Translations under genes and position numbers: made by a program
Notes under the pieces: model-generated
What the model was told of the DNA's origin: nothing
Seen by the model: only the letters and a program-made list of their open reading frames with translations
Database searches by the model: none
DNA from: Candidatus Yanofskyibacteriota bacterium
Lineage (GTDB): Bacteria > Patescibacteriota > Minisyncoccia > 2-02-FULL-40-12 > GWA2-44-9
Direction: 5' to 3'
Length of the DNA stretch: 54,401 nucleotides
Assembly: GCA_020847715.1 (NCBI GenBank)
Contig: JADLBM010000013.1
Span: forward strand, 1 to 54,401
In this document: positions 35,071 to 45,351 of the stretch, one piece after another
Numbering within the stretch: position 1 is the first letter of the stretch
How the letters are laid out: each line of letters opens with the position of its first letter

Positions 35071-36243
35071 CTAGTCGTCGGTCTTCATGGCCCACACCAG
35101 CATGAGCGCTGCGAATGCAGCGACGGCCATACCATACAAGAATGGAAGAGTGTCGTCAATGTTCCACAGCGCACCGGCGATGAGACCTGCGGGAATAGCG
35201 GCGAGTCCGGTGAGTGTTTCAAATGTGCCCAGCGCGGTCCCTCGGATCTCCTCCGGCGACATATCGGCAATGAACGCCCGCTGGGTCGCGTCCATGAATG
35301 CACGGGCGATACCGATGAGCGCAAAGAGCAGTGCGAGCACGAGAAACGCGTTGCCCGCGGAGAGTGTGATGCTATTGAAGAACCAGAACGCACCGCAGAC
35401 AACCGCAAAGAGCAGGTAGCCGAAGATGATGGTGCGACGGCGCCCGATGCGATCCGAGAGCGTGCCTGCCGGTGTCGAGGCGAGCGCGTCAACAAGGTGC
35501 AGGATAATGTAGGCGACCAGCGTCAGGCCAAGTGCACGCGTTCCGGAAAGATTCGGGAACGAGGATTGTCCGGCAAGCACGAAGAACGCCACCGAGATGT
35601 TTGCGAATGCGAAGAGCGTTGCGACCGCGATGAAGCGGCGCACCTTCGGGGTCAACTTTGCAAAGGACACCGAGCGCTGGGCAAGGCGCAGCCGCTCCGG
35701 CACCCGCACGAACACCAAGGGAACGACCGCCGCGAGACCAACGACCGCGGAGCCGATGAAGATAGCGCGAAACGGCACCTCAAGGAGCACGAACAGCACC
35801 AGCACAACACCCGCCCCCAAGAGCGCACCGGCGGCATCCATCGCACGCTGAACGCCGAATGCCCGGCCACGCTGGGCGACCGGCACCGATTCGCTGATGA
35901 TGGCGTCACGGGGCGCATCGCGGAGCCCCTTGCCGACGCGCTCAGCTGGACGCACCCACGCGATTTGTGTCCACGACGCCGCGGTGACATACCCGAACTT
36001 CAGGAGCGCAGACACCCCGTACCCTGCAACCACGACAGCTTTGTACGCCTTCGTGCGATCGGCAATGTAGCCCGAGAACACCCGCAGGAGCGCGGCGACC
36101 GCATCGCCTACGCCGAAGATGAGTCCGATGGCGACGCCTCCCCCGCCGAGCGTTTGGATAAAGAACGGGAGAACCGGAACTACCATCTCACTCGAGAGGT
36201 CGGCCAGAAGGCTCGTGATACCGAGCAGGAACACATTGATCAT
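35071..36243 (-). CDS. MFS transporter
   Basis: 390 residues, twelve predicted helices. The loop between helices two and three is GYIADRTKAYK, and the TM4-TM5 region is GKGLRDAPRDAIISES, a signature of a group of MFS exporters often seen in CPR and deltaproteobacteria. Substrate unknown. Its ATG overlaps the dnaX stop (ATGA), so it is co-translated with dnaX. Confidence 0.85.
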   Translation of the reverse strand: MINVFLLGITSLLADLSSEMVVPVLPFFIQTLGGGGVAIGLIFGVGDAVAALLRVFSGYIADRTKAYKAVVVAGYGVSALLKFGYVTAASWTQIAWVRPAERVGKGLRDAPRDAIISESVPVAQRGRAFGVQRAMDAAGALLGAGVVLVLFVLLEVPFRAIFIGSAVVGLAAVVPLVFVRVPERLRLAQRSVSFAKLTPKVRRFIAVATLFAFANISVAFFVLAGQSSFPNLSGTRALGLTLVAYIILHLVDALASTPAGTLSDRIGRRRTIIFGYLLFAVVCGAFWFFNSITLSAGNAFLVLALLFALIGIARAFMDATQRAFIADMSPEEIRGTALGTFETLTGLAAIPAGLIAGALWNIDDTLPFLYGMAVAAFAALMLVWAMKTDD

Positions 36244-37319
36244 GCGGTAGCGAGCTCGAGCGCGGCAAGCTCGAGCGGGAAGAATGCGATGGGCGAGGTG
36301 CGAATCTTCGCGCGCGCCTCGGTAAACACCTGAATCGCCTTCACGAGCTGAGCCCCTTCCATGGTCGCGGCAAACTCGAGCAGTTGCGCCGCTTGTGTAT
36401 CGGCCATGGCGAGTCCTGCCTGTTCAAGAATAGTTTTGTCTATCTTCGCCACCATCACCTGCCGGAGATACTCCAAGAATCCTTTTGCAAAATGGTCGGC
36501 GTCTGCTCCCTGCGTCTGTACTTCCTGCAGGAACCGAAGTGCACCGGCACGGTCGCGGGCAACGAGAGCGGCGAGGAGTCGCGGATACCACGAGAGCGGC
36601 ACGAGCCCAAGCACCGACTGCACGGCCGCCTCGTCGATGGCGGCTTTCCCCGCGTGGCTTGCCAGTTTCGTGAGCATCACCTCGGCGTCACGGAATGCGC
36701 CGTCGGCTGCCGACGCAAGTGCGGCAAGTGCGCCGTCGGACACCTTCAGTTTCTCCTGTCCGATGATGGTGGTGAGCTTCGCGATAATCTGCTGTTGGGT
36801 CGGCTTCTTGAAATCGAACCGCTGAACTCGCGACAGCACGGTCGGGATGATTTTCGATGCCTCGGTCGTCGCCAAAATGAACACCACATGCGCGGGTGGC
36901 TCTTCAAGTACCTTCAGGAACGCGTTGAACGCGTCTTTGGTAATCATGTGCGCCTCGTCGATGAGGTACACCTTGAACTTCGAACTCGTCGGCGACGCGC
37001 CGACCGATTCCTTCAACGCGCGCATATCCTCGATGGTGCGGTTTGACGCGGCGTCAATCTCGATAAGGTCCATCGAGCGGCCTTCGTCGATGGCAACACA
37101 TGAATCACACTTTCCGCACGGCTTCCCGCTCTTCGCAGTGCAGTTGATGGCCTTCGCGAAGAGGCGCCCCATCGTGGTCTTGCCGGTTCCTCGAGGGCCA
37201 GCAAAGAGGTAGGCGTGCGCGATGCGATCAACCGCGAGCGCGCCCTGCAGTGTGCGCACGACATGTTCTTGGCCCACCACCTCGCTCCACGTTGTCGGGC
37301 GGTATGTTCGATACAACAT
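36240..37319 (-). CDS. dnaX: DNA polymerase III subunit gamma (short form)
   Basis: 359 residues, so domains I-III only and no tau extension. Walker A GPRGTGKT at 41-48, zinc module CTAKSGKPCGKCDSC at about 60-74, Walker B and sensor LIDEAHMITKDAFNAFLKVLEEPP from 119, and the SRC-like SRVQRF at 163-168. It is the clamp-loader ATPase. A TACACT box six bases before the ATG and no Shine-Dalgarno point to a leaderless mRNA even for this core gene. Confidence 0.95.
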   Translation of the reverse strand: MLYRTYRPTTWSEVVGQEHVVRTLQGALAVDRIAHAYLFAGPRGTGKTTMGRLFAKAINCTAKSGKPCGKCDSCVAIDEGRSMDLIEIDAASNRTIEDMRALKESVGASPTSSKFKVYLIDEAHMITKDAFNAFLKVLEEPPAHVVFILATTEASKIIPTVLSRVQRFDFKKPTQQQIIAKLTTIIGQEKLKVSDGALAALASAADGAFRDAEVMLTKLASHAGKAAIDEAAVQSVLGLVPLSWYPRLLAALVARDRAGALRFLQEVQTQGADADHFAKGFLEYLRQVMVAKIDKTILEQAGLAMADTQAAQLLEFAATMEGAQLVKAIQVFTEARAKIRTSPIAFFPLELAALELATA

Positions 37320-37325
37320 AGAAAA

Positions 37326-37331
37326 AGTGTA
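37326..37331 (-). promoter_or_regulatory. -10 box (TACACT), leaderless start of dnaX
   Basis: Six bases before the dnaX ATG. AGAGGT upstream of the box is too far to act as a ribosome site. Confidence 0.55.
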
Positions 37332-37379
37332 CCTCTTTTTATATCACTTTCCAGCCCGCGACACTCACGTTGAGCCTAT

Positions 37380-37842
37380 GCCCACAGCTCCGCTCCCCAC
37401 CCCCATGCCCCGACTCGCCGGTGAGCATTGGAGCGGCATCCTGCTCGTATCAGGGGAAGCATCCGAATCTCCGCAGTCGCCGGTGCACGGCTTCGTGCTC
37501 CGCGTCATGCGGATGCTCCCCGATACTCGCAACGGATGCCATCGGTATCTGTGCTCACCCGCATGCTGCGGCTCGCTGGGGCACGGGGGCGGGGAAGCTC
37601 CACTACCCGAGGCGCGTCAGCACAGCGGCTCCCTCCCCGCGAGATGGTCCGAGTGAACGCTCAGCGAGCAGGGTGCGCCGATGCCCGTGCGGAATGACAG
37701 CGACGGGAGGTGTCTGCACCGGGTTCCCCGTCGCTGTCCCGCACGGGCAGGCGGACCCGTCGGGAGCGCAGAGAACGAGGCACGAGTGGGGAGGGAGCGC
37801 GGAGCGGCTACGCACTACGGTGGGGAGCGGGGGGGGAGCGAG
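37380..37842 (-). ncRNA. Large structured non-coding element between gtrA and dnaX
   Basis: About 460 GC-rich bases without plausible protein. Nested helices (plus coordinates): 37395-37411 with 37578-37594; 37420-37426 with 37553-37559; 37435-37441 with 37534-37540; 37447-37465 with 37510-37526; and a second arm 37628-37638 with 37788-37798, 37682-37692 with 37739-37749, 37697-37707 with 37727-37737. The first helix has two A-C mismatches on the plus strand that become G-U pairs on the minus strand, so the minus RNA is favoured. No SRP, RNase P, tmRNA or 6S core motif is seen. No clear separate promoter or terminator; may be processed from the gtrA-dnaX transcript. Confidence 0.6.
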
Positions 37843-38451
37843 CTAGCGGCGCTTGAAGACAAAGAGGCGGAAGCCGGTGAAACTGAAGATGAGGGCGGCG
37901 GCGGAGCCAACGACTGCGCCGATGCCAGCCCATGAGGCGACCGCGAACGTTTCGGGGCGGAGCGCGACGACTGCGGAAGCGGCGCCGACATTCACGAGAA
38001 GACTGGTAACCGCAACGCTGAGGAACGCCGCGATTTCTCGCTGGCCTCCTCGACTTCCCGCCGCATCGAACGCCCAGTATTTATTCCAGAGGTAGCTGTG
38101 CACGGTCGCGACACTAAATGAGACGGCCTTGAACGCAGTGTAGGCGCCGCCAGAGGCGTCCCCCGTCGCGGCGATGAACGCGTAGAGCACACCGAAATCA
38201 ACCGCCGCATTCGCGAACCCGATGGCCGCGAATCGCCCAAACTGAACGAACGGGCGGAACACGGCTCCGAGGATATAGCCCAGCTTCACTCCTGCCAGCC
38301 AGAGCACGGGCACCAGCGGCACCAGAAGCCCCGGCGGAAGATTGAACGGCAGCGGATGACCGAGGAACAATAAAATGCGCCAGCCGATAATGCCAGTCGT
38401 GAATCCGGTGACGAGTGAGGAGGAAATATCGCGGGCGGAAAGAGTCTTCAT
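37843..38451 (-). CDS. GtrA-like membrane protein
   Basis: 202 residues. The second part is a four-helix GtrA domain (FGRFAAIGFANAAVDFGVLYAF, about 73-94; HSYLWNKYWAFD at about 118-129; final FSFTGFRLFVFKRR). The first 65 residues add two more helices. GtrA proteins help flip lipid-linked sugars or anchor wall polymers. It follows the VirB4-like gene by 14 bases and probably shares its transcript. Confidence 0.85.
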   Translation of the reverse strand: MKTLSARDISSSLVTGFTTGIIGWRILLFLGHPLPFNLPPGLLVPLVPVLWLAGVKLGYILGAVFRPFVQFGRFAAIGFANAAVDFGVLYAFIAATGDASGGAYTAFKAVSFSVATVHSYLWNKYWAFDAAGSRGGQREIAAFLSVAVTSLLVNVGAASAVVALRPETFAVASWAGIGAVVGSAAALIFSFTGFRLFVFKRR

Positions 38452-44775: not shown

Positions 44776-45274
44776 GGGTATGTACCGGCATGAGCCGGCG
44801 ATGAGGCAGGTCCGTGGCGCCTGCGCCGCCACGGAGTACGACCGACAAGCTTTTCGTCGCAACTTCCCTGTCCGCCACTCGGCCCTTCCGCAGGAGGAGG
44901 GCCCGACTTGTATCGCGACGGTTTGACGGGACCCAGTCGGCGCGCTGGCGTGCGCCCGAGTGCGCCGCCTGAGCGCGCCGACTGGGGTACGGCGGATGTT
45001 TTTGCTGCCAGGTACAAAAACCGGATCGTCGGTACGGGCGGAGTACTCTGCTCCATTATCCCCACGAGACCCGGAAAAAGCCAATAATCGGAGAAACTGT
45101 CGCGAACGAGTTCTACCCTGTCTTCTTCTACCGGCACGGAATCGTAATTTCACTGCCTGAATGCTGACTGGTTGTTTCCCGCCCAAAGCGGAAAACGAGG
45201 CGATTATTGGCTTTTTCCGGGGCTCGGAGGTGCTGAGCCCGGAGTATGGAATGTGCTCAAGACCGAAGTCTTGT
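44747..45274 (-). ncRNA. Free-standing structured RNA of unknown class (about 525 nt)
   Basis: A near-perfect promoter (TTGACA-17-TATACT) and a strong terminator bracket a stretch without credible protein. It folds into: a 5' CAAGAC-UUCG-GUCUUG hairpin (45258-45273); GGGCTC/GAGCCC (45220-45240); a perfect 21-bp helix joining 45070-45090 and 45201-45221 around 110 bases; a perfect 15-bp helix 44932-44946 with 44972-44986; CGTCGCGA with TTGCGACG (44913-44920 with 44855-44862, including a G-U only on the minus RNA); CCGTGGCG/CGCCACGG (44812-44834); and CCGGC/GCCGG (44785-44798). No tmRNA, RNase P, SRP or 6S core motif found. Confidence 0.8.
45070..45221. repeat. Perfect 21-bp inverted repeat within the structured RNA
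   Basis: Arms 45070-45090 and 45201-45221 are exact complements containing CCAATAATCG and CGATTATTGG, separated by 110 bases. They stand out as AT-rich arms in a GC-rich region. Confidence 0.9.
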
Positions 45275-45280
45275 ACTGAC

Positions 45281-45309
45281 AGTATATCAGATGGCATCAA
45301 AACTGTCAA
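45281..45309 (-). promoter_or_regulatory. Promoter TTGACA-17-TATACT of the structured RNA gene
   Basis: Consensus -35, exact 17-base spacer and TATACT; predicted first base near 45274. Confidence 0.9.
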
Positions 45310-45351
45310 TGCCTTCGCTCAGTAGCCGCTCCGCGCTCCTCCTCTTCTGCC

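What the first reader, a model, noticed from the sequence alone, without database searches (positions are those of the whole stretch)
37380..37842. Second large GC-rich structured element between gtrA and dnaX
Two adjacent rods with seven or more nested helices fill the gap. In the outer 17-pair helix (37395-37411 with 37578-37594), both plus-strand A-C mismatches become G-U pairs on the minus strand, which argues for a functional minus-strand RNA. In Bacillus the SRP RNA gene sits upstream of dnaX, but no SRP core is seen here. Function unknown: stable RNA, or very long leader.
Basis: partly seen in the sequence, partly recalled or inferred. Interest (0 to 1): 0.75.

Follow-up and report, generated by a model that had tools for sequence, protein, structure and literature searches.

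The report
Dispersed hairpin repeats between two genes
The gap between gtrA and dnaX is filled by two long hairpin modules that also occur elsewhere in this bacterium or its sister species, so it is not an RNA specific to this spot; one module keeps its shape through matching base changes, and following it led to a large uncatalogued family of multi-copy structured RNAs in the same bacterial class.

Summary
In detail: the gap folds far better than shuffles (z -8.6 minus strand, -5.6 plus), and in the 17-pair helix both plus-strand A-C mismatches are G-U on the minus strand. The interpretation mostly does not hold. The gap is an insert: at most 18 nt in a congener, 9-74 nt in most relatives. 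It holds two adjacent dispersed modules. Rod A (37611-37807) recurs at 97% identity after uvrB in the same genome. Rod B (37393-37596) recurs in the sister species Ca. Yanofskybacteria SJ643, in the same gap but inverted relative to the genes, so it is not a dnaX leader. Rod B's outer helix survives two double-sided changes, and its minus-sense strand is the more stable in all seven B-type copies; rod A shows no strand preference. Neither matches Rfam. Best reading: non-autonomous dispersed hairpin repeats, rod B probably RNA-forming; mobility and transcription are inferred. In the sister's gap, B's neighbour belongs to a third family ("C"): about 140 nt, Y-shaped, conserved loops, strongly covarying stems, up to 23 copies per genome, in 18 families of the class, not in Rfam, absent from the window's genome. 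That is the more important discovery.

The parts
37393..37596 (-). Rod B: hairpin module, member of a small multi-copy family of the genus; probable RNA sense is the minus strand
   Evidence: 84-86% copies in G002 at C5 and C20; model R2 hit 37390-37593 minus (window copy is in the model); sense strand more stable in all 7 B-type copies
37395..37411 (-). Outer 17-pair helix of rod B, one arm
   Evidence: 15 Watson-Crick pairs plus 2 G-U on minus (A-C on plus)
37578..37594 (-). Outer 17-pair helix of rod B, other arm
37611..37807 (.). Rod A: 197-nt dispersed hairpin module; strand of any RNA undetermined
   Evidence: 97% copy at G000 C25:28512-28708 after uvrB; similarity stops at these borders; folds equally well on both strands
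37684..37749 (.). Apical hairpin of rod A (perfect 12-bp arms GACAGCGACGGG / CCCGTCGCTGTC inside)
37390..37401 (+). Left arm of the 12-bp perfect inverted repeat that encloses both rods
   Evidence: the same ends enclose a short-loop derivative at G000 C15
37819..37830 (+). Right arm of the enclosing inverted repeat
37320..37370 (-). A+T-rich stretch just upstream of dnaX, similar in G002, outside the rods
   Evidence: direct comparison
36240..37319 (-). dnaX (clamp loader gamma/tau), downstream flank
   Evidence: Pfam DNA_pol3_delta2 and DNA_pol3_gamma3
37843..38451 (-). GtrA-family membrane protein gene, upstream flank
   Evidence: Pfam PF04138

Best explanation
The gap is a landing place for dispersed non-coding hairpin modules, and two of them, rod B and rod A, sit side by side in it. 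Shown: both are repeats found elsewhere in the same or the sister genome; the gap is nearly empty in a congener; rod B lies inverted in the sister's same gap; rod B keeps its outer helix through double-sided changes, and its minus-sense strand is the more stable one in every copy. Inferred: the modules are non-autonomous mobile elements moved by an enzyme supplied in trans, and rod B acts as a folded RNA whose sequence-fixed apical part is read by a protein or RNA partner while the long stem only has to pair. Rod A is taken to be the same kind of object, but only its repetition and folding are shown.
For: Rod A repeated at 97% over exactly 197 nt, and its end again at C15. Rod B repeated in G002 at 84-86%. 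Gap at most 18 nt in G001 and 9-74 nt in most relatives. Rod B inverted relative to the genes in G002. Different rods at orthologous sites of different species: after uvrB, rod A in G000 and B-type rods in G002; upstream of the KIINVLKDD gene, a C element in G002 and an E element in G000. Folding z -8.55 and -5.64. Sense strand of B more stable in 7 of 7 copies. B outer helix: G-C to A-U and C-G to U-A double changes plus two G-U to A-U single changes between G000 and G002 (by hand). B-type outer arms pair with their own partner (score 14-20) better than with another copy's (6-13). A sister family in the same G002 gap (C) shows the same design with strong covariation.
Against: No transcript data. 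No mobilising enzyme identified: Y1 transposase absent, reverse transcriptase does not track copy number. No target-site duplication seen. Only two good full copies of rod A and few of rod B; the window copy is part of model R2, and R2's opposite-strand palindrome hits score as well as the diverged B members. The G002 C20 copy looks chimeric and lies at a contig end.
Confidence: 0.62

Rival explanations
1. Purely DNA-level palindromic repeats (REP- or MITE-like debris) with no RNA role. Arms stay complementary because mutations are copied from one arm to the other by template switching in the cruciform.
For: Dispersed copies in both orientations relative to genes. Rod A folds equally well on both strands. 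Family E copies in G000 disagree on the better strand. No sigma-70-like promoter or intrinsic-terminator-like site in the gap.
Against: Rod B copies all favour one strand (7 of 7), and family C copies do so in 6 of 6 and 36 of 38. Arm-to-arm copying does not predict G-U rather than A-C on one strand, nor the conserved loops of family C.
Confidence: 0.27
2. A host-beneficial multi-copy small RNA family (trans-acting regulator or RNA-stability element) rather than a mobile element.
For: Structure kept by compensatory change in B and C; conserved apical sequence.
Against: Patchy copy number even within a genus (family C: 6 in G002, 0 in G000 and G001; 19 in G006, 0 in G023). No constant gene neighbour or orientation. 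The gap is nearly empty in a congener.
Confidence: 0.15
3. A locus-specific RNA: a stable RNA gene or a very long leader of dnaX.
For: Position upstream of dnaX; strong fold; minus-strand G-U pairs.
Against: No Rfam match. Gap at most 18 nt in a congener. Rod B inverted in the sister's gap. Both rods repeated next to unrelated genes.
Confidence: 0.04

Closest known systems
REP/BIME repeats (REP superfamilies, PMC3733652; RAYT-linked)
   Same: Short intergenic palindromes, dispersed, both orientations, no coding capacity
   Different: REPs are 20-40 bp (PMC3733652); rods are about 200 nt. No Y1 transposase in G000-G003. Rod B has a strand preference
MITEs and ERIC-like long palindromic repeats
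   Same: About 100-200 nt, non-coding, inverted-repeat ends, dispersed, empty sites in relatives
   Different: No target-site duplication and no parent transposon found; arm sequence differs between B-type and C-type copies while pairing is kept
Repetitive or double hairpin elements of mitochondrial genomes (PMC2800124)
   Same: Hairpin modules inserted in intergenic regions of small genomes, patchy between close relatives; movement through RNA has been suggested for Allomyces
   Different: Organelle elements with no known homology; in the sponge elements the stems are conserved and the loops vary, the reverse of families B and C here
Family C RNA (found here)
   Same: Apex conserved, stem covarying, one preferred strand, dispersed intergenic copies; occupies the same gtrA-dnaX gap in G002
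   Different: Branched, with loops GGCTTGGTTCT and CCGCTGGAG; models R1 and R3 find no member in the window or its genome

Membership tests
Known RNA family of Rfam 15 (SRP RNA, RNase P, tmRNA and others) | Covariance-model score at or above the family's gathering score | tested here: not met
   Only a tRNA elsewhere in the window; relaxed scan of the gap gives chance hairpin matches
REP/BIME with RAYT | Y1 (REP-associated) transposase in the genome | tested here: not met
   PF01797: none in G000-G003, controls ring
REP/BIME with RAYT | Unit of 20-40 bp | tested here: not met
   Rod A unit is 197 nt, rod B about 200 nt
MITE | Terminal inverted repeats | tested here: inconclusive
   Rods are inverted-repeat bounded, but the arms differ between B-type copies
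MITE | Target-site duplication | tested here: inconclusive
   None seen by eye at the two rod A copies or in C flanks; few copies and diverged flanks
MITE | Parent transposon or matching transposase in the genome | not tested
   Only Y1 transposase and RVT_1 were searched
Family B (this report) | GGCATCCGYTGGC ... GCCnGGATGCC around a variable inner stem | tested here: met
   Present in G002 C1, C3, C16 and C17; the window copy is a near match with GGCATCCGTTGC. R2 E-values are weak evidence because opposite-strand palindromes score alike
Family C (this report) | Match to model R1 or R3 | tested here: not met
   No match in G000; nothing at rods A or B up to E 5
dnaX leader | Same sense as dnaX and conserved upstream of dnaX in relatives | tested here: not met
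   Gap at most 18 nt in G001; rod B inverted in G002
Any RNA | Transcription | not testable with these tools
   No expression data on hand

The most novel reading that the evidence does not exclude
Rods B and C represent a new kind of element in Patescibacteria: short non-coding modules that spread as dispersed copies yet are under selection as folded RNA, with a sequence-fixed apex and a freely changing but always pairing stem, possibly moving by way of the RNA itself.
Probability: 0.25. Interest if true: 0.85.

Novelty: new variant of a known kind. Interest (0 to 1): 0.6.

Why it matters
Patescibacteria have small, tightly packed genomes in which long dispersed non-coding repeats are unexpected. 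Rod B carries a strand-specific RNA signature that ordinary palindromic repeats should not show. Following it also exposed an uncatalogued RNA family (C) that recurs up to 23 times in a 0.8-Mb genome and spans 18 families of the class; its function is open and directly testable with existing metatranscriptomes.

Tried and rejected
(1) Known RNA: Rfam gathering and relaxed scans, no match. (2) dnaX leader: rejected by the short gap in G001 and the inverted copy. (3) First thought that cores insert into loops of pre-existing hairpins, because family C copies have near-identical cores and seemingly unrelated arms. Dropped when the arms proved homologous (same-side arms 32-91% alike) and covarying. 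(4) REP/RAYT: no Y1 transposase. (5) Mobilisation by reverse transcriptase: RT genes in G002, G006, G011 and G020 but none in G017 (14 C copies) or G000, so no clean link. (6) Carriage by phages or plasmids: no match for the gap; a family C pattern finds nothing in viral contigs; other pattern hits were chance matches of 18-22 bases. (7) A fixed target motif or shared flank for family C: none seen. (8) A hairpin census by BLAST timed out; a direct scan worked and showed that long-loop rods are few and that most strong hairpins are terminator-like. (9) MAFFT alignment of diverged B-type members was poor in the inner stems, so B covariation is given by hand for two copies and as an arm-matching matrix, not as a formal score.

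Full report
WHAT WAS CHECKED. The gap between the GtrA-family gene and dnaX (identities by Pfam) is strongly structured on both strands (z -8.55 minus, -5.64 plus). The named 17-pair helix exists, with 2 A-C mismatches on plus that are G-U on minus. No Rfam family matches the gap.

THE GAP IS AN INSERT. The gtrA-dnaX order is conserved across the order. The gap is at most 18 nt in congener G001 and 9-74 nt in eleven other relatives; three of the fifteen gaps printed are 312-384 nt and show no resemblance by eye. It is about 520 nt in G000 and 490 nt in G002. The last 50 nt or so before dnaX are alike in G000 and G002, so the two gaps are homologous and the rods lie inside them.

THE RODS ARE DISPERSED. 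Rod A, a 197-nt unit, recurs at 97% identity 3' of uvrB in the same genome. Its end, with the same enclosing inverted repeat, recurs at C15 with only a short loop. Rod B recurs at 84-86% in G002 at C5 and C20; G002 is Candidatus Yanofskybacteria isolate SJ643. The C5 copy lies in the orthologous gap, but there the strand equal to the window plus strand is the gene strand, so rod B is inverted relative to gtrA and dnaX. Other orthologous sites also differ between species. After uvrB there is rod A in G000 and B-type rods in G002, with no such rod evident in G001. Upstream of the KIINVLKDD gene there is a C element in G002, an E element in G000 and none evident in G001.

ROD B LOOKS LIKE AN RNA. 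Between G000 and G002 the outer helix shows one G-C to A-U and one C-G to U-A double change plus two G-U to A-U single changes (by hand). The window-minus sense is the more stable strand in all B-type copies: window, C5, C20, C1, C3, C17, C16. Diverged members share GGCATCCGYTGGC and GCCnGGATGCC (or close variants) around inner stems of different sequence, and outer arms pair with their own partner (score 14-20) better than with another copy's (6-13). Caveats: model R2 includes the window copy; its opposite-strand palindrome hits score as well as the diverged members; and the C20 copy is an apparent chimera at a contig end. Rod A has no strand preference.

FAMILY C. The second rod in G002's gap has six copies in G002. 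Their first 58 core bases are invariant but for one base in one copy, while same-side arms are only 32-91% alike. Fourteen of the 27 pairs of the closing helix change on both sides; the covariation score is 0.301 against 0.153 shuffled and at most 0.095 slid. Model R1 found relatives in other genera with loops GGCTTGGTTCT and CCGCTGGAG. A 25-sequence alignment gives 24 of 29 pairs changed on both sides, score 0.724 against 0.213 shuffled and at most 0.141 slid. Model R3 finds it in 25 of 45 genomes of the order, up to 23 copies in one, and in 25 of 142 genomes drawn from the class, in 18 families. The sense strand is more stable in 6 of 6 G002 copies and 36 of 38 further copies. In G011 the conserved module is about 138 nt and its flanks are not conserved. 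Ten loci have no Rfam match to the element. It is absent from G000 and G001, and rods A and B are not members.

HOW IT MOST LIKELY WORKS. Shown: repetition, near-empty site, inversion, structural conservation of B and C, strand preference. Inferred: that these are non-autonomous mobile modules, that B and C are transcribed, and that a fixed apex is recognised by a partner while the stem only needs to pair. The mobilising enzyme is unknown: Y1 transposase is absent and reverse transcriptase does not track copy number cleanly.

COMPARISON. It works like dispersed hairpin repeats: REP elements (PMC3733652) and the mitochondrial hairpin elements described in PMC2800124. It is not a REP by size or enzyme. 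MITE membership is open because no target duplication or parent transposon was found.

LIMITS. All evidence is sequence-based and largely from draft genomes in many contigs; contigs break at some of these repeats, so copy numbers are lower bounds. Copies within a genome are related, so covariation counts are not independent events, and the predicted structures guided the alignments.

Noticed in passing
L008:1778-1921 (G002 C5); also L034, L042, L046, L050, L054, L162, L163, L165, L172, L200: Family C: uncatalogued multi-copy Y-shaped RNA of about 140 nt across the class, up to 23 copies per genome, strongly covarying stems, no Rfam match; absent from the window's genome.
   Followed up: yes
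window 44900-45330 (3' of ftsQ, minus strand): Structured element with a 26-bp stem (45065-45090 / 45201-45226) whose stem and several interior motifs (AGCCAATAATC, GGCGGGAAAC, AGAAGAAGACA, GTCAGTTTCTC) recur 3' of ftsQ in congener G001; no Rfam match. Looks like a locus-conserved RNA, unlike rods A and B.
   Followed up: partly
L145:5821-5929 and L147:12473-12575 (G000 C15): Family E: two hairpins in the window's genome share a 63-nt core at about 94% identity while their outer arms differ in sequence and each still pairs.
   Followed up: partly
L003:1501-1565 (G000 C15): Short-loop derivative of the window element: the same enclosing CGCTCCCCACC / GGTGGGGAGCG ends and start of rod A, but the roughly 370 nt holding the rest of rod A and rod B missing. 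Deletion product or precursor, not decided.
   Followed up: no
L006:1495-1756 / L192, L104, L122 (ends of G002 contigs): Several G002 contigs end inside nested B/D-type rods; the C20 copy has a D-type 5' arm and a B-type 3' arm that do not pair, so recombination or an assembly chimera.
   Followed up: partly
L178, L173, L182 (G017): Family C copies in G017 carry extra hairpins inserted in loop 1, between GGCTT and GGATCT.
   Followed up: no
L229-L232: Reverse transcriptase genes (PF00078): 4 in G002, 4 in G006, 1 each in G011 and G020, none in G000, G001 or G017; type not determined.
   Followed up: no
L148:1-112 and L151:1-124 (starts of G000 contigs C17 and C25): Identical 60-bp tandem repeats in opposite orientation at two contig starts, probably one locus split by assembly.
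   Followed up: no
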